NCBI GenBank assembly: GCA_018656005.1
Contig: JABHZW010000006.1
Location: 1-32,018, forward strand
DNA from: Candidatus Pseudelusimicrobium marinum
GTDB taxonomy: Bacteria > Elusimicrobiota > Elusimicrobia > Elusimicrobiales > Elusimicrobiaceae
DNA: 32,018 bases
Direction of reading: 5' to 3'
The translations under genes and the position numbers were made by a program. The notes beneath the pieces are model-generated. The model worked only from the letters and a program-made list of their open reading frames with translations, had not been told where the DNA came from and made no database searches. Every line of letters begins with the position of its first letter. Position 1 is the first letter of the stretch. Positions 1,740 through 17,736 of the stretch are shown piece after piece.

Positions 1740-2768
1740 TTATTTTTTAGTGGCAAGAGCTGTTGAGACCATTGTGTTTAGCAAATCTTCGTAGCTTATC
1801 TTACTAGCTGAAAAAAGTTGTGGAAATAAACTTTTTTCAGACATTCCCGGAATACTATTAATTTCTGAAAAGTAAATTTCATTTTTATCTGTAACCAAAA
1901 AATCTACCCTAGAAAATCCTTGGCATTTTAATGAAGCAAAAATTTTTGTGGAAAATTTTTGCATTTTTTCTGCCAATTCGTAGTCAATATCGGCTGGGGT
2001 TTTGGCTATGCAACCTCTAGGATCTTGATACTTTGCTTCATAGTCAAAAAACTCGTGCTTAGACGGCAAAAGCTCTCCACATTTAGATGCTACAACCTCG
2101 CCATTATCTTTTTCTAGTAATGCACAGAAAATTTCTCTTGGATTATCTATACCCTTTTCCAAAATAACACGACTCTCGTATTTTAGAGCTTTTTTTGTTG
2201 CAGATTCAAGATCTTTTTCGGTTTTAACTTTGCTAATACCAATCGAAGAACCTAAATTTACTGGCTTTACAAAAATAGGATAACCAAGTCGCTCTACTTT
2301 TTGTTTGATATCTTTTAAATCGTAATTATTTGAAATTTCTATATGTTCAAGTGTTAGTATTTGTAAACCTTGCGCAATTTCTTTGCTGATCGCTTTATCC
2401 ATAGACATAAAACTGCTTTTAACACCACAACCAATATATTTGCAACCATAACTTTCCAATATCCCCTGAATTTTGCCGTCTTCACCATAAGGACCGTGAA
2501 GTACTGGGAAGAATAAGGCGATTTTTTCCTCCACCTTACCATCTTCAGAAATTATTTTGGAATGGTTTTTTAGATTTACTTTAATATCAGTTGGTTTTTT
2601 AAAACCACAGGTTTGTTGGAGGAAAAAATCGCCCTCCTTACTTATATATATAGGTAGTATGCGATGTTTTTTAGTCAAAACCTTACAAACATCTTCTGCC
2701 GAATGTACGGACACTTCATGCTCGGGCGAAATGCCACCATATAAGACTGCTATAGTAATTTTATTCAT
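1740..2768 (-). CDS. ddl: D-alanine--D-alanine ligase
   Basis: Ddl makes the D-Ala-D-Ala dipeptide of peptidoglycan with ATP in the cytoplasm. The 342-residue product has the typical length and ATP-grasp order: VLYGGISPEHEVSVHSAEDV at the N-terminus, HGPYGEDGKIQG, the nucleotide-binding VKPVNLGSSIGISKV, FSRVDFLV, and the Mg-binding EINSIPGMS near the C-terminus. The start ATG (2766-2768) has no Shine-Dalgarno site; a TATACT box lies exactly 6 nt upstream and is preceded by TG at the extended -10 spacing, suggesting leaderless translation. It lies 35 bases downstream of tRNA-Phe on the same strand. The last codons are repeated 65 bases downstream. Confidence 0.96.
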   Translation of the reverse strand: MNKITIAVLYGGISPEHEVSVHSAEDVCKVLTKKHRILPIYISKEGDFFLQQTCGFKKPTDIKVNLKNHSKIISEDGKVEEKIALFFPVLHGPYGEDGKIQGILESYGCKYIGCGVKSSFMSMDKAISKEIAQGLQILTLEHIEISNNYDLKDIKQKVERLGYPIFVKPVNLGSSIGISKVKTEKDLESATKKALKYESRVILEKGIDNPREIFCALLEKDNGEVVASKCGELLPSKHEFFDYEAKYQDPRGCIAKTPADIDYELAEKMQKFSTKIFASLKCQGFSRVDFLVTDKNEIYFSEINSIPGMSEKSLFPQLFSASKISYEDLLNTMVSTALATKK

Positions 2769-2774
2769 ATATAA

Positions 2775-2780
2775 AGTATA
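2775..2780 (-). promoter_or_regulatory. -10 box for leaderless ddl
   Basis: On the - strand TGA-TATACT is followed by 6 nt and the ddl ATG, so a transcript starting at the usual distance would begin at the start codon itself. No -35 match is convincing; the TG at the extended -10 position may compensate. Confidence 0.5.
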
Positions 2781-2803
2781 TCAAATGAGATAAGATAAAA
2801 GAT

Positions 2804-2875
2804 TGCCGAGGGGCAGGATCGAACTGCCGACACCTGGTTTTTCAGACCAGTGCTCTACCACTGAGCTACCTCGGC
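2804..2875 (-). tRNA. tRNA-Phe (GAA)
   Basis: Read on the - strand this is a full cloverleaf: a 7-bp acceptor GCCGAGG/CCTCGGC (2869-2875/2805-2811), a D-arm with AGCTCAGTGGTAGAGC, an anticodon stem CTGGT/ACCAG with loop CTGAAAA (anticodon GAA, Phe), and a T-arm GGCAG-TTCGATC-CTGCC. The discriminator base is A (2804). CCA is not encoded, so it must be added enzymatically. It lies in the same orientation as ddl and just upstream of it. Confidence 0.96.
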
Positions 2876-2886
2876 TTTTAACCGAT

Positions 2887-2917
2887 AAAAAAGTTCGTAG
2901 TTGGAAAACTATCGAAC
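2887..2917 (-). terminator. Terminator-like hairpin in the tRNA-Phe leader
   Basis: On the - strand GTTCG-A-TAGTT, loop TTCC, AACTA-CGAAC (2893-2917, 10 pairs with one bulge) is followed at once by six T (complement of 2887-2892). It lies between the likely tRNA promoter and the tRNA 5' end, where it could act as an attenuator or a processing signal. No other - strand gene lies close upstream that it would terminate. Confidence 0.45.
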
Positions 2918-2923
2918 ATAATT

Positions 2924-2953
2924 ATTATATCATTTTTTTAATATCTGCCTCAA
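2924..2953 (-). promoter_or_regulatory. Probable promoter of tRNA-Phe
   Basis: On the - strand TTGAGG (complement of 2948-2953), an 18-nt spacer and a perfect TATAAT (complement of 2924-2929) predict a start near 2917, about 42 nt before the mature tRNA. Confidence 0.5.
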
Positions 2954-2970
2954 TCTATTCCCAAAAATTA

Positions 2971-2976
2971 TATAAT
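2971..2976 (+). promoter_or_regulatory. -10 box for leaderless nadD-yqeK
   Basis: A perfect TATAAT is followed by TCTATT and then the ATG at 2983. There is no Shine-Dalgarno sequence before the start. The spacing of 6 nt matches that before ddl, rsfS, plsY, miaA and miaB. Confidence 0.55.
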
Positions 2977-2982
2977 TCTATT

Positions 2983-4134
2983 ATGAAAGCAACTACTAAA
3001 CAAGACAATGTATTAATATTTGGTGGCAGTTTCGATCCTGTGCATTCTGCACACATCGCATTACTAAAACAAGCCATTAAACAAATTAAACCAAAGTATA
3101 GTTATGTTATACCTACATATTTGTCTCCGTTTAAAAAAAGTCATTCTATTGACCCAAAACATAGAATTAAAATGGCGAAACTTGTATTTAATAAAATATC
3201 CAAAACAATTATTGTAGATGATATTGAAATTAAAAATAATAAAAAAACTTATGCATATCAAAATCTAAAATATTTGCAAAAAAAGCATACTAATGCAAAA
3301 TTTTTCCTACTTGTAGGCTCAGATTGTGTAGACACACTACCCAAATGGAAAAATTTTGCCTATCTAAAACAAAACATTATATTTTTAATAGGGAAACGGG
3401 AAGGATTTAAACTTAAAAAGAATTTACCATTTAATTACGAGGTGTTGAAAGGGAATTTTCCAAAAATTTCGTCCACTGGTGTTCGTGAAAATTTGGAAAT
3501 TTTTGGAAAGACCGATAGCCACATACCAAGTCCTATAAAAACATATATAAAGCAACGCAATTTATACAATTACGAAATCCATAAATGGCTTGAAAAAAAT
3601 TTAGCGGTTGCAAGGTACACTCACACAAAATACGCAGCGAAATTGGCTGTGGAACTTGCAAAAACACATAATATAGACGAACAAAAAGCATTAATAGCTA
3701 GCTTAATTCATGATATGGGCAAAAGTTTAACGGTGGAACAAAAAATAAAATATTGCGAAAAAAATAAAATAAATTTTAAAAACATAAAAACTGTAGAAAC
3801 CTATGCTCCACAGCTTTTACATAGCCATATTTCAGAGGATATGGCTAAAAAAATATTTAAAATAAAAGATAAAGATATTTTAAATGCTGCCAAGCATCAT
3901 ACCCTTGGCAAAAACAAAATGAATAAACTTTCAAAAGTTATTTTTGTGTCAGATGCAAGCTCTGAAGATAGAAATTATCCTAATGCAAAAAAAGTAAGAC
4001 AATTAGCTTTCGAAAATTTAGATAATGCACTAAAAGAAGCAATGCGTTTAAAAATATCTTATACTATATCCACAGGTAAATGGGTAAGTTTAGAGGCAAT
4101 ACGAATATGGAACCAAATTATTTCACAAAAATAA
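2983..4134 (+). CDS. nadD: Nicotinate-nucleotide adenylyltransferase fused to a YqeK-type HD hydrolase
   Basis: The 383-residue product joins two enzymes. Residues about 9-195 are NadD, which makes nicotinate adenine dinucleotide for NAD synthesis: FGGSFDPVHSAH carries the nucleotidyltransferase His motif and ISSTGVRENL closes the domain. Residues about 200-383 are an HD hydrolase of the YqeK type (diadenosine tetraphosphatase in the characterised family), with RYTHTKYAAKLA, ASLIHDMGK and AAKHHTLGK supplying the metal His/Asp residues. In many bacteria nadD, yqeK and rsfS are separate neighbours; here the first two are one polypeptide and rsfS follows after one gene. The start at 2983 is chosen because an upstream extension would translate the antisense of tRNA-Phe. 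Confidence 0.92.
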   Translation: MKATTKQDNVLIFGGSFDPVHSAHIALLKQAIKQIKPKYSYVIPTYLSPFKKSHSIDPKHRIKMAKLVFNKISKTIIVDDIEIKNNKKTYAYQNLKYLQKKHTNAKFFLLVGSDCVDTLPKWKNFAYLKQNIIFLIGKREGFKLKKNLPFNYEVLKGNFPKISSTGVRENLEIFGKTDSHIPSPIKTYIKQRNLYNYEIHKWLEKNLAVARYTHTKYAAKLAVELAKTHNIDEQKALIASLIHDMGKSLTVEQKIKYCEKNKINFKNIKTVETYAPQLLHSHISEDMAKKIFKIKDKDILNAAKHHTLGKNKMNKLSKVIFVSDASSEDRNYPNAKKVRQLAFENLDNALKEAMRLKISYTISTGKWVSLEAIRIWNQIISQK

Positions 4135-6966: not shown

Positions 6967-8175
6967 ATGAAAAAAATAATATTAATTGTATTTGGGATAC
7001 TAATAGCAATACCATCCTTATTTAGTGCTTATCCCACAGAAGAAATGATGAAAAATCCTAATTTAAAAAAGATTCCTGAAGCAGGAATATCTATATATAT
7101 ATTTAAGGATGCTTACAAAAATAAAAACAATCGACATATATCCGGTCTTATATATGAAAATGGAAAAGAATTTCAAGAGAACGAAATTGAGTTAGAAATA
7201 GGTTGGCTTGATCTTAATGGTTTTGTAGAGGTTATTGACATGTGTGTTAATGACAGAAAAAAAGATAGCAAATGGATAGTAAAAGAATTAAAAAAAATAA
7301 AAAAAGAAAATCTTCCACTAATGAAAACCCTGCAAAAAGGGTGTTTCGATATGGAAGATTCTTTAGAAAACATGCTTTTTGAAACTAACCGTAGCACATT
7401 TAATAGCCACATTACTCATATAATTACTTTGGAAGAATTTTTAGAAAATCCTTTTATGACATGGAAAAAAAGCAAAAGACCCCTTCTAAACAATATTGCT
7501 TACCACATAGATTTAATAGAAGACATTCTTGATAGTAAATATTATCCTGAACTTTTAGAAAAACAAGATAAGAATGGGTGGAATATTTTGTACTACATGA
7601 CTCATTTAAGAGTTATCGATAAGCTTGAAGAAAGAAATTTAGATGGTTATGTTGGAAATGGTCTAAATATTATAGACATCACAATGAATCGATATAGAGA
7701 AAATATCCTTCCCGTAGTATTAACACAGTGTGTTTTTTGCATGGAAGGAAATGTAAGTACTAATTTGTATTATAATTTAGTATTTTCAAACAAAAAAAAT
7801 AAACCTCTAAATAAATTTAATATTTTAGAAATATCAATAGTTAAAAACTCTAAAATTATTTTTTATACAATATTTTTTCTCTCTATTTCCCTAGCATTTC
7901 TATTGGGGATAAAAAAAGGTAGGAAAGCTATTTTTATTAATATTTTAAATACACTTCTTGCTTTTGTTGTGTTAGTTTTATGGTCATGCATAGGTTTCTC
8001 AATTGGATATCTAAATTTTTGGATATTTTTGATTTTAGAGTTAGTTTTGATTGCAATAGCATGTTTTCTGTTTAAAAAAAGCTACAAAACAACTCCAATA
8101 CTTATATTGATAATGGTATTCACACTTTTTGTTTCAATGATACAGTATATATTCGATACATTAACATCAATGTAG
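6967..8175 (+). CDS. Unrecognised signal-peptide protein with ankyrin-like segment and C-terminal membrane helices
   Basis: I do not recognise a named family. The 402-residue product begins with a signal peptide (residues 1-21, MKKIILIVFGILIAIPSLFS). Two segments of DxxGxN type (DKNGWNILYYMTHL and NGLNIIDITMN) resemble single ankyrin repeats. About four hydrophobic helices fill residues 289-396. The gene at 11178-12095 has the same architecture and shared motifs (ITLEEFLENPF against ITIESVLEDPF), so the two are divergent members of one family. An AGGAGA Shine-Dalgarno site precedes the ATG. It follows argS by 21 bases and ends before a bidirectional terminator, so it is probably read from the argS transcript. 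Confidence 0.7.
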   Translation: MKKIILIVFGILIAIPSLFSAYPTEEMMKNPNLKKIPEAGISIYIFKDAYKNKNNRHISGLIYENGKEFQENEIELEIGWLDLNGFVEVIDMCVNDRKKDSKWIVKELKKIKKENLPLMKTLQKGCFDMEDSLENMLFETNRSTFNSHITHIITLEEFLENPFMTWKKSKRPLLNNIAYHIDLIEDILDSKYYPELLEKQDKNGWNILYYMTHLRVIDKLEERNLDGYVGNGLNIIDITMNRYRENILPVVLTQCVFCMEGNVSTNLYYNLVFSNKKNKPLNKFNILEISIVKNSKIIFYTIFFLSISLAFLLGIKKGRKAIFINILNTLLAFVVLVLWSCIGFSIGYLNFWIFLILELVLIAIACFLFKKSYKTTPILILIMVFTLFVSMIQYIFDTLTSM

Positions 8176-9471: not shown

Positions 9472-10452
9472 TTATAACCCCATTGCTTTTACTAAAACAG
9501 TTGGCTTTTCGCCCTTACATACAACTTGCCATATTGCAGAAATTACAGGTGCATTAATTTTGTGTCTTTCTATTAAATGATACACACTCGCTACAGAATT
9601 TACACCTTCTGCAACTGTACCAACTTCTTCTATGGATGTTTGCAAATCTTTACCTTGCCCTAATTTTTCGCCAAGTTTTCGGTTTCTAGACATTTGGCTC
9701 ATACCTGTCAAAATAACATCGCCCAAACCAGCTAAACCGTAAACAGTTTCTGTTTTAGCACCTTCTTTTAACATAATTTGGTTCATCTCTTGCATTGCTT
9801 TTACTATTAAGGCAGATTTGGTGTTAGCACCAGTTCTAATACCGTCTAAAATACCGCAACCTATTGCTAAAACATTTTTTATAGCTCCGCCGTATTCTAC
9901 ACCTCGTCTATCTGTTGAAATTTCTACGATGATAGGTTTTTTTGCAAGTGCTTTTTCTAAAATTTTGAGTAGTTTTTCGTCGCTACCTGCCAACATTATT
10001 TTTGTTGGCACATGCCTTGCAACTTCTAGTGCAAAGGTTGGTCCTGTAAATGCCATAGCTTGGTTTTTTAAATGAGGAATTTCCTCTTCAATAATTTCGC
10101 AAATTGTTTTATAACTTTCGTCTTCTATACCTTTAGATGCAGATATTACAGGTATAACTTTTCCGTCCAAAGCTGTTTTTAAATTAGCACAAAAACCTCT
10201 TATGCCTTTGGTGGAAATAACTATAAAAGCCAAATCTGTATTTTCTAAAGCTTGTTTAATATCGCCGAAGAAAGTTATATTTTCGTTAAAAGTAAAGTTT
10301 TCTATATTTGGGTGGGTTCTGTCTTTAAAGCTGGCAAGAAGGTCTTTATTATATTCCCAAAGCGAAATTTTGTATCCGCCTTCAGCAAGATATTGTGCTA
10401 TTACACTTCCCCATACGCCTGCACCAAAAACTGTTATATTATTTATTTTCAT
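9472..10452 (-). CDS. gpsA: Glycerol-3-phosphate dehydrogenase [NAD(P)+]
   Basis: GpsA reduces dihydroxyacetone phosphate to sn-glycerol 3-phosphate, the substrate of PlsY, encoded just upstream. The product is 326 residues with the chosen start. It opens with the Rossmann motif GAGVWG (residues 10-15) and contains ISASKGIE, FTGPTFALEVA, GGAIKNVLAIGCGILDG with the catalytic Lys, and GLAGLGDVILT. An upstream ATG at 10485 would add 11 residues reading into plsY; the internal ATG at 10452 puts the Rossmann motif at the normal distance. It overlaps plsY by 14 bases. Confidence 0.95.
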   Translation of the reverse strand: MKINNITVFGAGVWGSVIAQYLAEGGYKISLWEYNKDLLASFKDRTHPNIENFTFNENITFFGDIKQALENTDLAFIVISTKGIRGFCANLKTALDGKVIPVISASKGIEDESYKTICEIIEEEIPHLKNQAMAFTGPTFALEVARHVPTKIMLAGSDEKLLKILEKALAKKPIIVEISTDRRGVEYGGAIKNVLAIGCGILDGIRTGANTKSALIVKAMQEMNQIMLKEGAKTETVYGLAGLGDVILTGMSQMSRNRKLGEKLGQGKDLQTSIEEVGTVAEGVNSVASVYHLIERHKINAPVISAIWQVVCKGEKPTVLVKAMGL

Positions 10453-11071
10453 GCCGTTTATGGTCCTTATCAGAGCCGTCTTCAAACTTAAGCTCTTCTT
10501 TTTTGAAAAGTCGTTTCATATTTGGGATATGTTTGTAAACTATTAAAATTGAAATTACTGTCCCCATTATTTTAAAGGATATTGGATAATCGCCAATAAA
10601 GAAACTTAAAAATGGGAATGCTAATGCGGCAATTACCGAACCTACGGAAATATGCCCGCTAATAGCGACACAAATTATAAAAATAGTGAATACGATAGCT
10701 GTTGGTATTGGTAATAATGCAGCGAAAACACCTGCTGATGTTGCCACCCCTTTACCACCTTTAAATTTGAGTAGGATATTGGACATATGTGCAAAAATAG
10801 CTATGAAACCACAGCCAATTGCGAACCAATGATATCCGGGAAAGAAATGTTGAGCCAGTGCAACAGCAGCGAAGCCTTTGGCGGCATCTACTAAAAATGT
10901 TGCCCAGCCGGCACCCTTGCCGACTATTCTGTACACATTCGCAGCACCGGGATTACCAGAGCCGTATTTTCTTATATCTATTCCTCTTAATTTCTTGGCT
11001 AAAATGTAGCCAGTGGGAATTGCGCCAAGCAAGTAGCTAAGAACGCCTACGAAAATCATTTTTATTATCAT
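10439..11071 (-). CDS. plsY: Acyl-phosphate:glycerol-3-phosphate acyltransferase PlsY
   Basis: PlsY is the inner-membrane enzyme that acylates glycerol 3-phosphate from acyl phosphate to make lysophosphatidic acid. The 210-residue product has multiple membrane helices and the three family motifs: GAIPTGYILAK near the N-terminus, KYGSGNPGAANVYR, and KFKGGKGVATSAG. The C-terminus is a charged cytoplasmic tail. The ATG is preceded by TATAAT at 6 nt and no Shine-Dalgarno site, so it is a leaderless candidate and head of the plsY-gpsA-BFN-HU-merR operon. A decayed copy of the miaA 3' end lies immediately upstream, suggesting miaA and plsY were once neighbours. Confidence 0.95.
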   Translation of the reverse strand: MIIKMIFVGVLSYLLGAIPTGYILAKKLRGIDIRKYGSGNPGAANVYRIVGKGAGWATFLVDAAKGFAAVALAQHFFPGYHWFAIGCGFIAIFAHMSNILLKFKGGKGVATSAGVFAALLPIPTAIVFTIFIICVAISGHISVGSVIAALAFPFLSFFIGDYPISFKIMGTVISILIVYKHIPNMKRLFKKEELKFEDGSDKDHKRHENK

Positions 11072-11077
11072 AGTTTT

Positions 11078-11083
11078 ATTATA
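11078..11083 (-). promoter_or_regulatory. -10 box for leaderless plsY
   Basis: On the - strand TATAAT is followed by AAAACT and the plsY ATG. The box overlaps the stop codon of the decayed miaA tail, so this promoter lies in former miaA coding sequence. No clear -35 is visible. Confidence 0.55.
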
Positions 11084-11162
11084 ATAAATTTATAAGCTGT
11101 GTGCAGGTATTTTGAAGGTCTTTTTGCGAATTTATGCTTATTTTTTCAGCACTTTTGTATGC
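11079..11162 (-). pseudogene. miaA 3'-end remnant (copy 3, next to plsY)
   Basis: In the miaA reading frame this 84-base piece reads as 27 codons plus a stop, with AEKISINSQKDL identical to residues in the intact MiaA C-terminus and a different last part ending QLINLL. Bases 11116-11150 are identical to 12146-12180 and differ at two positions from 13227-13261. It has no start and cannot encode an enzyme. Its distinct tail and position beside plsY suggest it is the original end of the resident miaA. Confidence 0.75.
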
Positions 11163-11177
11163 TTATTATAAAAAACC

Positions 11178-12095
11178 CTATCCCATTCTTCTCGTTATAA
11201 TTTCTACTGTCCAAATAGTTAGAAACACCAAAGATAGAATAGCACTAAGTATAACAGTGCTTTTATATTTATCTATTTCTTTTTGGATAAAATAACCTAC
11301 AGGGACTATAAATATACTCCAAACAAAACAAACAATTAGATAAAAAGGAAGAATACGATAATAGATAATGTCCCTCAAAATAGAGAAAATCATTATTACT
11401 ATTACAAATGATATGCCTAAGTTTATAATTTTGGATATTTTCTTATGAGTATTTTCTTTCCTATTTCTATAGTATATAAGGGAAGATAGTAATAAAAATA
11501 ATAAAAATATCGTAATTTTACAATATTTTACAATGTATATTTTCATTATATTTTCTTTTTTTACTGGATATAAATCGTTTTTTATTATAGTTTTGAGTAA
11601 AGGCTCATAGTAATTTCTATAAATCCAAGGACGAGGTACATCAGCTAGATCAAAAAAATTAAATTTAAAAACTACTGAAAAAAATGTCAACTTATTAGTG
11701 AATATTTTATGTTCCATTAGACTGTCTATAATATTATTTCCATTTTCATCTTTTATTTCTAGTATTTCAGACATATATTTGCTTTTCCCTAAATATTCAA
11801 ATCTTTTAATTTTTAGTAGAGAATATTCAAAGAAATCCATTTTTATATAATCATCTCTACTTCCACTATAGTTCCAAGTATCTCTAATAATTTTTTCAAA
11901 GGGGTCTTCTAAAACACTCTCAATCGTTATGTTTTTTTTAATGAAATATTTTTTGTTTTTAGAAGAATTAAAATCCATTACTATTTTTTCTAATGAATCT
12001 ACACTTTTATTTAGCTCTTGGCTATTTTGAGAATAAGAATTAAAAGTCATGCCCACCAGAAATACCATAAAAATAATTGTTATTAATTTTTTCAT
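11178..12095 (-). CDS. Unrecognised signal-peptide membrane protein, paralogue of the 6967-8175 product
   Basis: No named family is recognised. The 305-residue product has a signal peptide (residues 1-22), an extracytoplasmic part with a DENGNNIIDSLMEH segment resembling one ankyrin repeat, and four hydrophobic helices from about residue 192 to 297. Shared motifs with the 6967-8175 gene (ITIESVLEDPF; KYMSEILEIKDENGNNI against KYYPELLEKQDKNGWNI; the run into the first helix) show homology. It lies between two fragments of the miaA 3' end, as a single-gene unit of about 1.03 kb. AAGGAGAG precedes the ATG. A TATAAT box in the upstream miaA-like repeat may serve as its promoter. Confidence 0.7.
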   Translation of the reverse strand: MKKLITIIFMVFLVGMTFNSYSQNSQELNKSVDSLEKIVMDFNSSKNKKYFIKKNITIESVLEDPFEKIIRDTWNYSGSRDDYIKMDFFEYSLLKIKRFEYLGKSKYMSEILEIKDENGNNIIDSLMEHKIFTNKLTFFSVVFKFNFFDLADVPRPWIYRNYYEPLLKTIIKNDLYPVKKENIMKIYIVKYCKITIFLLFLLLSSLIYYRNRKENTHKKISKIINLGISFVIVIMIFSILRDIIYYRILPFYLIVCFVWSIFIVPVGYFIQKEIDKYKSTVILSAILSLVFLTIWTVEIITRRMG

Positions 12096-12122
12096 ATCAA
12101 ACTCTCCTTAAATTTTTCTTTT

Positions 12123-12128
12123 ATTATA
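12123..12128 (-). promoter_or_regulatory. -10 box in miaA-like repeat, upstream of the 11178-12095 gene
   Basis: On the - strand TATAAT lies about 27 bases before the ATG, with an AAGGAGAG site between. It overlaps the stop of the miaA-like fragment. The corresponding site in intact miaA is TACAAT (13204-13209). No good -35 is seen. Confidence 0.35.
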
Positions 12129-12237
12129 CTATATTAATATTTTCTAGGTCTTTTTGCGAATTTATGCTTATTTTTTCAGCGTTTTTATAGCGAGCGAACC
12201 AAGTTCTCTGCCGTTTGGCATACTGACAAGTTAAAGC
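12124..12237 (-). pseudogene. miaA 3'-end fragment (copy 2)
   Basis: This reads in the miaA frame as 37 codons and a stop, from ALTCQYAKRQRTWF to LENINIV, against LTRQYAKRQRTWF to LENINIVQ in intact MiaA. Homology extends at DNA level from about 12112 to 12225 (13193 to 13306 in miaA) with only five mismatches over 114 bases. Some differences are synonymous (CAG/CAA, ACT/ACA), so it appears to come from a related but diverged miaA, not from a fresh local duplication. It overlaps the 3' end of the 12231-13178 gene by 7 bases in another frame. Confidence 0.85.
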
Positions 12238-13178
12238 CCTATATCTTCAGGTCTAACTAAAATTTCTTCTTTTATTTTAAAACCGATACAATTATCTCTA
12301 TCTTTATATTCTTTTAATCCCCATATATATGTTGGTTTTCCAAGCATATCTTCCAAAACTTTACGATGACTACGATAATGTCCTTCTCCAAAAGCAGCAT
12401 AAACAATATCATACCTATTTAGTGCAGCGGCAATATTTTTTAACATAAAAGGATCTCTCCCATAAAAATCCTCATCTTCTGAAAGTTTATTAAAAATAGT
12501 CCCTGTTGATTTAGGAGCAGACCAACCCTTTTTAAACACAGTATTCAATTCTACTTTATCAAAATCTTTGTCAAACTCTTTTTTAAACCAAGATTTGAAT
12601 TCTTCAGTATTCATCATTTTTCCTAATTCAGGATTATGATTAAATATTTTAAAATTATGCACCTCTTTCTCTGCGTTACTATTTTTGCCAAATTGTTTTT
12701 TATAGGAAATAGCATTTTTTATCATCCATTCTGCTTGCATAGCTTTATAAGCATTAGAATTTTTTGTGAGAACTACCTTGACTTTATCTTCATAAGATAA
12801 ATCTGCTAAAACAACTGGGATATTTTTATCAGAAGCAATTCCTGCACTGTATTCAAATTCATTCCAACTACACTTTTCTTTTAATTTTCTACCAGTTCTT
12901 TCAAATTCAACAACAGCAATTTCTGGAGCATATTTTTTGTAAATATAATCCACCATATCCAATGTTTTACCAGAGTTATGGTCACTTGCTAAATAGATTA
13001 ATGTTTTTCCATCTTTTCTATACACGGCAATATAAGGTTGCTTATGTTGTTTTGAGGTTTGTCCTGCATTTTCCCAAGTTTGAAGAAGTTTTAAATTGGG
13101 GGTAAACTCGTTTTTACTTTGAGCACTTAGAGAACCAACAAAAAATAAAATAGAAAGAAATAATGTAGTTTTTTTCAT
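12231..13178 (-). CDS. Secreted TraB/GumN (Tiki)-like protein
   Basis: The 315-residue product has a signal peptide (residues 1-19) and no further membrane helix, so it is probably periplasmic or secreted. Three spaced motifs fit the TraB/PrgY/GumN/Tiki superfamily: LASDHNSG (residues 63-70, the GxxH position), AVVEFER (88-94, the conserved Glu), and AAFGEGHYRS followed by VLEDMLGKP (261-282, the second His). Family members include putative metalloproteases and pheromone-shutdown proteins; activity here is inferred only. The gene forms a roughly 1.08 kb unit between intact miaA and a miaA 3' fragment. AAGGAG precedes the ATG. The last codons run into the miaA-like fragment. Confidence 0.6.
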   Translation of the reverse strand: MKKTTLFLSILFFVGSLSAQSKNEFTPNLKLLQTWENAGQTSKQHKQPYIAVYRKDGKTLIYLASDHNSGKTLDMVDYIYKKYAPEIAVVEFERTGRKLKEKCSWNEFEYSAGIASDKNIPVVLADLSYEDKVKVVLTKNSNAYKAMQAEWMIKNAISYKKQFGKNSNAEKEVHNFKIFNHNPELGKMMNTEEFKSWFKKEFDKDFDKVELNTVFKKGWSAPKSTGTIFNKLSEDEDFYGRDPFMLKNIAAALNRYDIVYAAFGEGHYRSHRKVLEDMLGKPTYIWGLKEYKDRDNCIGFKIKEEILVRPEDIGL

Positions 13179-13201
13179 GAAAATCTCCTTTGATTTTTCT
13201 T

Positions 13202-14128
13202 TTATTGTACTATATTAATGTTTTCTAGGTCTTTTTGGGAATTTATGCTGATTTTTTCAGCGTTTTTATAGCGAGCGAACCAAGTTCTCTGCCGTTTGGC
13301 ATATTGTCTTGTTAGAATTACGATTTTTTCTATCGCTTGTTTTTTAGACAATTTGCCATCTAAAAATTCTATCGCTTCTTTATAGCCTAAGCTTTTTAGA
13401 GCGGGGCAATCTTTGGCGAAACCTTTTTCTATTAAAGCTTTGGCTTCTTTTACCATAGGTTCAAAAATCTGATTGGTGCGAAGTATAATGCGTTTTTCTA
13501 GCTCTTCTTTGTCCCAATTTAGATATAGTATAGTCGCTTTTTTTGAGGGGATATCCTCAAAAAAAGCACCTGTTTTTAAGCTAGATGGTTTCTTGCCAGA
13601 TATTTGGTAAATTTCTAATGCTCGCATCACTCTTTGGATATTTTGTGGTGGTATTTGGCTAGCCGAAATCCGATCGATTTTTGCTAATTTTTTATGTAAA
13701 TAGTCTTTCCCAAATTTTTCGGCTTCAGCTTGTAATTTTGCACGAATTTTTGGATTGGATTTCGGCATATTATCCATACCAACAAAATATGCTTGTATAT
13801 ACATGCCCGTACCACCTGCAAATATTGGTGTCTTTTTTCTTTGTAAAATTTCTAGTGAAATTTTACTTGCCATTGCCACAAATTTACTAGCATCGAAAGT
13901 TTCAGTCGGCTCTAAAATATCAACAAGATGATATGGCACATCATCGACAAGATATTTGCCATCTTGCCATTTGCCTTCTGGTTTTGCTGTACCCTTTTCT
14001 AGATATTTATATACCTGCCGAGAATCGACAGAAATTATTTCGCCATTAATTTTTTTTGCAAGAGCTATCGCAACATCTGTTTTACCAGACGCTGTAGGTG
14101 CTACTATAATTATTGGTTTCTTGCTCAT
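13202..14128 (-). CDS. miaA: tRNA dimethylallyltransferase MiaA
   Basis: MiaA attaches a dimethylallyl group to A37 of tRNAs that read UNN codons; MiaB (14935-16035) then methylthiolates it. The 308-residue product has the P-loop APTASGKT (10-17), SVDSRQVYKYLEKGTAKP, the GGTGMY motif and the C-terminal RQYAKRQRTWF. The ATG is preceded by TAAAAT at 6 nt with no Shine-Dalgarno site, a leaderless candidate. The stop overlaps a TACAAT box that may drive the next gene. Its last about 110 bases occur again at 12124-12237 and partly at 11079-11162. Confidence 0.96.
   Translation of the reverse strand: MSKKPIIIVAPTASGKTDVAIALAKKINGEIISVDSRQVYKYLEKGTAKPEGKWQDGKYLVDDVPYHLVDILEPTETFDASKFVAMASKISLEILQRKKTPIFAGGTGMYIQAYFVGMDNMPKSNPKIRAKLQAEAEKFGKDYLHKKLAKIDRISASQIPPQNIQRVMRALEIYQISGKKPSSLKTGAFFEDIPSKKATILYLNWDKEELEKRIILRTNQIFEPMVKEAKALIEKGFAKDCPALKSLGYKEAIEFLDGKLSKKQAIEKIVILTRQYAKRQRTWFARYKNAEKISINSQKDLENINIVQ
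13204..13209 (-). promoter_or_regulatory. -10-like box at miaA stop, upstream of the 12231-13178 gene
   Basis: On the - strand TACAAT overlaps the miaA TAA stop and lies about 25 bases before the next ATG, with an AAGGAG site between. It is conserved in the second copy (TATAAT at 12123-12128). There is no convincing -35. Confidence 0.3.
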
Positions 14129-16092: not shown

Positions 16093-17736
16093 TCAAAATA
16101 AATTATTTATTTTCTTAAGTCCTTCAATAGCAGGTTTTTCGAGATGTATCTTTATTACACTTCTACCACCATTACTCAATGCCTTAAAATCGCCGAGAGC
16201 TTGAGCATTACATAAATCCTCAAAACTATACTCTTCGCCTGGTATTCTAATTTCATTTTCTACTGGGGCAGATAATATTATAAATAAACCTTTATTCCCG
16301 TCGCCTTTGTATAGCTGACCGGTGGAATGCAAATATCTTGGACCATAACCAAACACCACTGGACGAGATGTTCTTGTGAAAATTTCATCTTTCCAACAAT
16401 TTATAACTTTTGTATATCCCTCTGAACTATTTGTGTAAGGAAGTATCGCCAAGTATTCATGATCTTTTAATAATTTGTAAACATTTGATGCTAAATTTTG
16501 GAAATTTATATCTTTATCTTTTAAGTTTTCTGATAATATTAGCTTTTCTGGTTCTTGTTTTTCATCAGAAGAAAGTTCTTTTAAAAGTTCTTTAGTTAAA
16601 ATTTTTGCAGATTCTACATTCGGCTGATCGAACGGATTAATTTTCATTAAAGCACCCGCACCTGCTGTGGCTATTTGCCATAAAATATATTGAGTAGCAA
16701 GATCATAATTATTTTCCATACAAACGGTCATAAGTGGATGCCCTGCATTTGTAATTTCTTCTAAAATAGAGGAAATTCTTTTATCAAAATCTTCACATTG
16801 TTTTATATAAACAAAAACTCTGTCGTCAATATATTTAAAATCTCTGTACAAACCTTCGCCACAAATAGGAAGTATGCCCTTGCCTTCTTTACCTGTGCTT
16901 TCTGCTACAAGTTGTTCCACCCAAAGCCCAAAACTTTCTATCTGTTTTGGCATTATTAATGTTAATTTATCTCTGCCTTCTAGATTTGCTTGCCCTAAAA
17001 GTGAGGCTAAACTTAGGGCTTTATCTTCTGCTAAAAATTCTTGATAAGAATTTTTAGCAACACCCAAAAACTTTTTAACATCTACACCAAGTAAAGATGC
17101 AGGAACCATACCAAAATAAGATAGTGCAGAAAATCTGCCACCGATATCAGACGGATTAACAAACCTTTTTAAAAATTTTTGATCTTCGGATAATTTATAT
17201 AAACCAGTGCCTTCGTCTGTAATTGCTATAAAATTATCACCTGGATTTTCCACCCCTTCTCTTTTAAGTTCTGCCCAGAAATATTTGAAACTAGAATTTG
17301 GTTCTACAGTGCCACCGCTTTTACTTGCGAAAATAAAAAGTGTTTTTTTAATATCTATTTCTTTTCTTACAAAATTTATCCAATCTGCATTTGTGGTATC
17401 CAAAACAAACATTTTTGGGAAACCTTCGGCATTGCCGAAAATATTATTAAAAACTTCCGGCGCTAAACTTGAACCGCCCATGCCCAAAAGTACACAATAT
17501 TCAAATTTTTGTTTTGCCTCGTTTGCAAAACTGGTTATTTCGTCTGCATTTTCTAAAGAAAAATCTATAACAGACAGCCAACCTAGGGAATTATTGATTA
17601 TTTTTTTATGCTCTTCGTCATTTTTCCACAAAGTAGCATCTTTTTTTTGTAAACGAGATATGAAATCTTGATTTTTTAAAGATTCTAAACCAGAATTGAT
17701 TATTTTTTTTGCAGGTTCATTAATTTCTATTTTCAT
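16093..17736 (-). CDS. pgi: Glucose-6-phosphate isomerase
   Basis: Pgi interconverts glucose 6-phosphate and fructose 6-phosphate. The 547-residue product has LLGMGGSSLAPEVF, FIFASKSGGTVEPNSSF with the sugar-phosphate-binding SGGT, and INPFDQPNVESAK near the C-terminal third. The sequence resembles the isomerase half of the transaldolase-Pgi fusions found in several phyla, but no transaldolase domain is attached. It overlaps rpiB by 4 bases, so the two are translated together, in a sugar-phosphate isomerase trio with gmhA. Confidence 0.93.
   Translation of the reverse strand: MKIEINEPAKKIINSGLESLKNQDFISRLQKKDATLWKNDEEHKKIINNSLGWLSVIDFSLENADEITSFANEAKQKFEYCVLLGMGGSSLAPEVFNNIFGNAEGFPKMFVLDTTNADWINFVRKEIDIKKTLFIFASKSGGTVEPNSSFKYFWAELKREGVENPGDNFIAITDEGTGLYKLSEDQKFLKRFVNPSDIGGRFSALSYFGMVPASLLGVDVKKFLGVAKNSYQEFLAEDKALSLASLLGQANLEGRDKLTLIMPKQIESFGLWVEQLVAESTGKEGKGILPICGEGLYRDFKYIDDRVFVYIKQCEDFDKRISSILEEITNAGHPLMTVCMENNYDLATQYILWQIATAGAGALMKINPFDQPNVESAKILTKELLKELSSDEKQEPEKLILSENLKDKDINFQNLASNVYKLLKDHEYLAILPYTNSSEGYTKVINCWKDEIFTRTSRPVVFGYGPRYLHSTGQLYKGDGNKGLFIILSAPVENEIRIPGEEYSFEDLCNAQALGDFKALSNGGRSVIKIHLEKPAIEGLKKINNLF

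What the first reader, a model, noticed from the sequence alone, without database searches (positions are those of the whole stretch)
11079..13318. Three copies of the miaA 3' end separate two single-gene units between miaA and plsY
Seen directly: the last about 110 bases of miaA recur at 12124-12237 (five mismatches over 114 aligned bases, some synonymous), and a 35-base core recurs again at 11116-11150. Copies 2 and 3 stay open in the miaA frame to a stop, with different tails (NINIV and QLINLL). Between them lie one secreted TraB-like gene (12231-13178) and one membrane-protein gene (11178-12095). Inference: foreign units of miaA-tail plus gene entered by crossovers at the miaA 3' end, each leaving a functional hybrid miaA upstream and a decapitated tail downstream, as integrative elements do at gene 3' ends. 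The tail beside plsY would be the original one. No integrase is present, so the mechanism may be homologous recombination at a hotspot that trades single cargo genes, with the promoter carried inside the repeat.
Basis: partly seen in the sequence, partly recalled or inferred. Interest (0 to 1): 0.78.

Follow-up and report, generated by a model that had tools for sequence, protein, structure and literature searches.

The report
Single-gene insertions leave core-gene tail relics
In a bacterium that is probably a member of the Elusimicrobiaceae, small accessory genes sit just behind housekeeping genes and are each followed by a cut-off leftover of that housekeeping gene's end, a scar suggesting that single genes were imported together with a foreign copy of the gene end, without an integrase.

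Summary
The repeats are real. Behind miaA lie a secreted protein gene, a cut-off miaA 3' end, a membrane protein gene and a second cut-off miaA end, then plsY. The order miaA-hflX-plsY is ancestral in the family and its sister family, and neither inserted gene occurs there in any relative examined. Scanning 99% of the genome (997 gene ends) gave one more clear case: uppS, a lipocalin-like gene, a cut-off uppS end, then cdsA. In a different genus a pilin-like gene is flanked by a 107-nt, 98% direct repeat of the uppS end. Between intact and cut-off tails most codon differences are synonymous (uppS 9 of 11; miaA tails about 6 of 8), so both copies were long under coding selection; local duplication followed by decay fits poorly for the uppS pair and only marginally for miaA. 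The genome has only two tyrosine recombinases (Xer-sized) and no serine recombinase, and the targets share no core sequence. Best reading: one-sided homologous import of [foreign gene 3' end + accessory gene], landing in the resident gene's tail. It resembles insertion with long target duplication and homology-facilitated illegitimate recombination.

The parts
13202..14128 (-). miaA, full length; its 3' end is intact tail 1
   Evidence: Pfam IPPT 1.1e-69; ORF list
13169..13314 (-). Repeat copy 1: miaA 3' end, stop, leader with AGGAG, start codon of the next gene
   Evidence: 146 nt, 90% to copy 2
12231..13178 (-). Accessory gene 1: secreted TraB/GumN-like protein, 315 aa; C-terminus runs about 7 residues past the end of its homologues
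   Evidence: homologues in G009, G015, G017 and own C17, none at miaA
12088..12233 (-). Repeat copy 2: decapitated miaA tail (...NINIV*) plus leader of accessory gene 2
   Evidence: synonymous differences
11178..12095 (-). Accessory gene 2: signal peptide plus membrane segments, 305 aa; no homologue in 89 other family genomes, a 28% paralogue at 6967-8175
11079..11159 (-). Repeat copy 3: shorter decapitated miaA tail with a different C-terminus (QLINLL*), presumed original tail
10439..11071 (-). plsY, resident downstream gene; conserved miaA-(hflX)-plsY-gpsA order in relatives

Best explanation
Each accessory gene entered together with the 3' end of a foreign homologue of the upstream core gene. 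One side of the incoming DNA recombined by homology inside miaA (or uppS). The other side, past the accessory gene, was joined without long homology to a point inside the last 60-115 nt of the resident gene. The product keeps a complete hybrid core gene, gains one gene, and leaves the resident gene's cut-off tail next to the untouched downstream gene. In a compact genome the redundant 3' end of the replaced gene is one of the few harmless landing places, which would explain why scars sit there. At miaA this happened twice in succession, the unit beside plsY first. Shown: anatomy, synonymous divergence of tails, absence of the cargo from relatives at these sites, recurrence at uppS, no candidate integrase. 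Inferred: the crossover inside miaA, the illegitimate end, natural transformation as the route, order of events.
For: Three decapitated tails at two loci among 997 gene ends scanned (the third, short tail). uppS relic against tail: 9 of 11 differing sense codons synonymous, 10 of 14 differences at codon position 3. miaA tails: 3 of 3 sense differences synonymous between copies 1 and 2, about 6 of 8 over three copies by hand count; probability under duplication plus decay 0.006 (uppS), 0.05 (miaA), 6e-4 pooled. Tail 3 has a different C-terminus. Accessory genes absent from relatives at these sites. Ancestral miaA-hflX-plsY and uppS-cdsA orders; hflX missing from this genome. A ComEC-family DNA-uptake gene is present. 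No shared core between targets.
Against: No donor or same-genus genome was available, so import is inferred from substitution patterns over short stretches (33 and 19 codons). The binomial nulls are rough, the 0.40 synonymous fraction for duplication plus decay was my own estimate, and the three-tail count (6 of 8) is by hand. The pilin-like case in G015 has 98% identical copies, which fits local target duplication equally well. The two miaA units share their leader up to the start codon, which one-sided joins alone do not predict.
Confidence: 0.52

Rival explanations
1. Insertion with long target duplication: each accessory gene was inserted by an unknown end-joining event that copied 50-110 nt of the target locally; the copies were identical at birth and drifted apart.
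For: Direct repeats flank each insert; a near-identical 107-nt repeat flanks a pilin-like gene at uppS in G015; the same pattern was described in Helicobacter (PMC1643837).
Against: A non-coding relic should decay at random, but the uppS differences are mostly synonymous (P about 0.006) and miaA marginally so; tail 3 and tail 2 differ wholly in their last codons.
Confidence: 0.24
2. Campbell-type insertion or unequal crossover: the accessory genes were alternative occupants behind miaA in different strains, and homologous recombination between tails of two such alleles (or a popped-out circle) stacked them.
For: Copies 1 and 2 share 146 nt including leader and start codon, as expected if both genes once occupied the same place; 53 nt of exact identity is enough for homologous recombination (general knowledge).
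Against: Does not by itself explain the first insertion or the uppS case; no strain variants could be seen.
Confidence: 0.12
3. Tandem accretion of tiny non-autonomous integrative elements at an attachment site in the miaA 3' end, moved by a site-specific integrase in trans.
For: Anatomy of gene 3' end restored upstream and remnant downstream, stacked in tandem, as in CIMEs (PMC7563491).
Against: Only two tyrosine recombinases, of Xer size, and no serine recombinase in the genome; the 35-nt core is not conserved in copy 1; uppS and miaA targets share no core.
Confidence: 0.07
4. Assembly artefact joining strain variants at a repeat in a metagenome-assembled genome.
For: The genome is in 62 contigs and looks like a metagenome assembly (inference).
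Against: Copies differ from one another and share at most 53 exact nt; a second independent locus has the same anatomy.
Confidence: 0.03

Closest known systems
Insertion with long target duplication (Nobusato et al. 2000, Gene 259:99-108, as cited in PMC1643837)
   Same: Inserted gene flanked by long direct repeats of a target sequence; no transposase or integrase at the locus
   Different: Described for restriction-modification genes; here single secreted or membrane genes, stacked twice at one target, and repeats differ by mainly synonymous changes rather than being near-identical copies
Homology-facilitated illegitimate recombination (PMC3240628 and the transformation studies it cites)
   Same: Works like it: one homologous end, one illegitimate end, foreign DNA gained
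   Different: A reaction seen in laboratory transformations; here a proposed natural footprint with the resident gene's tail left as a scar. The homologous end cannot be located here
CIMEs and accretion of integrative elements at gene 3' ends (PMC7563491)
   Same: Intact 3' end upstream, remnant ends in tandem downstream
   Different: No integrase found in the genome, no common core, units of one gene and about 1 kb
Integron gene cassettes
   Same: Single small genes in a row separated by related sequences
   Different: Separators are coding remnants of miaA; no integron integrase found

Membership tests
Insertion with long target duplication | Insert flanked by long direct repeats of target sequence | tested here: met
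Insertion with long target duplication | Repeats derive from local duplication of one target copy | tested here: inconclusive
   Synonymous divergence argues against it at uppS (P about 0.006) and only marginally at miaA; G015 copy is 98% identical
Insertion with long target duplication | Related genome with the empty, single-copy target | tested here: inconclusive
   Family relatives have single tails and neither cargo gene in the interval but are only about 45-58% identical in MiaA
Homology-facilitated illegitimate recombination | Homologous join on one side of the insert | tested here: inconclusive
   Hybrid core gene inferred from tails only; no donor available
Homology-facilitated illegitimate recombination | DNA uptake machinery | tested here: inconclusive
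   A ComEC-family protein is present, cut by a contig end; other competence genes not tested
Integrative element / CIME | Site-specific recombinase available | tested here: not met
   Two tyrosine recombinases of 301-306 aa open frames only, no serine recombinase; about 7% of the genome may be missing
Integrative element / CIME | Identical core shared by all att copies | tested here: not met
   35-nt core shared by copies 2 and 3 only; copies 1 and 3 share at most 11 exact nt
Integron cassette array | Integron integrase | tested here: not met
   only two tyrosine recombinases, taken as XerC and XerD from their size

The most novel reading that the evidence does not exclude
Elusimicrobiaceae trade single accessory genes as integrase-free cassettes whose portable homology arm is the 3' end and leader of a conserved gene: any gene lying behind miaA or uppS in one strain can be stacked behind the same gene in another by ordinary recombination.
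Probability: 0.15. Interest if true: 0.72.

Novelty: new variant of a known kind. Interest (0 to 1): 0.46.

Why it matters
How single accessory genes enter compact genomes without mobile elements is usually inferred only from gene content. Here the replaced gene leaves a readable scar, and the scan used (gene tail repeated downstream, cut off, ending at a stop) can be run on any genome to count such events and to find donor alleles.

Tried and rejected
Tail repeats of miaA in 29 relatives: none. Cargo at miaA in relatives: none. Tail core in viral contigs: no match. TraB-like gene in plasmids: none. Xer/dif-type site in the tail: a dif-like scan gave many weak hits and the tail does not look like one by eye. 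Repeats in L100, L098 and L051 first looked like cassette spacers but are dispersed leader and REP-like repeats. Tail repeats in L061, L090, L175 and L173 are tandem paralogues. Mirror-image relics of gene heads: no clear case. AlphaFold model of the TraB-like protein without alignment: pLDDT 40, not used. Phage, defence and NCBIfam libraries: nothing convincing for the cargo. The named-genome collection gave only distant MiaA relatives.

Full report
Setting. The window is contig 23 of a 1.20 Mb, 62-contig genome, 92.75% complete, the only genome of its genus among those held. One family relative, G001, is a single contig of 1,643,562 bases, which I recognise from memory as the size of Elusimicrobium minutum; the family assignment Elusimicrobiaceae therefore rests on recall, not on a test.

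Observation. On the - strand the order is miaA, TraB-like gene, cut-off miaA tail, membrane gene, shorter cut-off miaA tail, plsY. Repeat copies 1 and 2 match over 146 nt at 90%, including stop, leader and next start codon; copy 3 matches over 52 nt. The coordinates given were right; the mismatch count was low (8, not 5, in 113 nt).

Chance and artefact. The match of tail 1 to tail 2 has E about 1e-43. Longest exact identity is 53 nt between copies 1 and 2, 35 between 2 and 3, and 11 between 1 and 3, so a contig chimera through a collapsed repeat is unlikely.

Comparison of the interval. In both families examined the usual order is miaA-hflX-plsY(-gpsA). In this genome hflX is missing: no match over the family's cut-off, while 14 of 14 control genomes have one. 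In genus g6 the interval also varies: pilin-like genes or a trypsin-like secreted gene (my reading of its TAAHC motif) lie there and hflX is absent from the interval in several species, but without tail repeats. The membrane gene has no homologue in 89 other family genomes; the TraB-like gene has homologues in four of 39 searched relatives, those inspected lying at other loci.

Is it special to miaA? I fetched about 1.186 of 1.201 Mb of the genome and compared each of 997 gene ends with the 5-6 kb downstream, at protein level. Besides tandem paralogues, only two genes have a clear cut-off tail downstream that ends at a stop and has no upstream homology: miaA and uppS. At uppS a Lipocalin_5-domain gene (1.2e-30), absent from 59 relatives, lies between uppS and a relic reading NLEKAISEYQQRTRRFGGI*, against NLEKAISEYQNRTRRYGGI* in uppS. 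uppS-cdsA adjacency is common in relatives. The relative G001, 640 kb and 535 tails, has none. In G015, another genus, a pilin-like gene behind uppS is flanked by a 107-nt direct repeat, 98% identical, that begins in the last 34 nt of uppS and includes a terminator-like hairpin.

What the differences say. In the uppS pair 9 of 11 differing sense codons are synonymous and 10 of 14 differences fall at third positions. In the miaA tails, copies 1 and 2 differ at three sense codons from the shared TAT codon on, all synonymous; over three tails I count by hand 6 synonymous of 8 changes. If a relic decayed freely after a local duplication I estimate about 40% synonymous differences (my own rough figure); the observed counts have probabilities 0.006 (uppS), 0.05 (miaA) and 6e-4 pooled. 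So at uppS, and probably at miaA, both tails evolved as working gene ends in separate lineages before they met. That favours import of a foreign gene end with the accessory gene. Tail 3 has an unrelated last dozen codons, as a different allele would.

Mechanism. Only two tyrosine recombinases (306 and 301 aa open frames, the size of XerC and XerD) and no serine recombinase were found. miaA, uppS and the G015 repeat share no more sequence than shuffled strings. A site-specific system is therefore unlikely. A ComEC-family gene is present. I propose one-sided homologous recombination in the core gene with an illegitimate join in its tail, the reaction that PMC3240628 describes as homology-facilitated illegitimate recombination. 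The cargo stop codons lie at the start of the tails (TTTAA in both the TraB-like and lipocalin joins), and the TraB-like protein runs about seven residues beyond the ends of its homologues, as expected if its own stop was lost at the join. The shared leader of the two miaA units suggests that both once lay directly behind miaA in different strains and were stacked by unequal recombination; this is inference.

Limits. No same-genus genome, no donor, short tails. Local target duplication remains a live rival, above all for the G015 case. The promoter-in-repeat idea is neither shown nor excluded: a TATAAT overlaps the tail's stop in copies 2 and 3, but promoter-like hits in the region are at the shuffle level.

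Noticed in passing
L086 (G000:C44) 16314-17499: uppS, lipocalin-like gene and uppS-tail relic: second case of the same anatomy, used in the main argument.
   Followed up: yes
L207 oriented 2154-3010 (G015): Pilin-like gene flanked by a 107-nt, 98% direct repeat covering the uppS 3' end and a terminator-like hairpin. Further pilin places (L255/L261, L260) have 35-36-nt exact, palindrome-like repeats on both sides. G015 has 102 matches to this pilin N-terminus, so this may be one way these genes spread.
   Followed up: partly
L100 1411, 3528-3692, 5622, 9743, 11956; L050 4863; L076 13129 and others: A dispersed repeat of about 60 nt (roughly AGGTGGCWATAAAGCATTAGCAAAACWAGTGTTATRTRGTCACGAAAACAAAAAGGAG), at least 37 copies, 27 with an ORF starting within 67 nt downstream on the same strand, several inside the ribosomal protein operon. 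In the stretches given to Rfam only tRNAs matched.
   Followed up: partly
window 14366 and 29874; L051, L054 and others: REP-like intergenic element AGCGAATACTSCGAAGSAGTAGCGG, at least 34 copies in the genome.
   Followed up: no
window 6967-8175: Paralogue (28% identity) of the membrane cargo gene directly behind argS, without a repeat of the argS tail.
   Followed up: partly
L073 4395-4970 and 5025-5606: Two neighbouring genes share an almost identical signal peptide and N-terminus (88% over 119 nt) but differ after it, as if the signal region had been exchanged or copied.
   Followed up: no
window 2803-4134: The longest ORF of the nadD-like gene starts inside a tRNA gene on the other strand (2804-2875); the true start is probably further downstream.
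   Followed up: no
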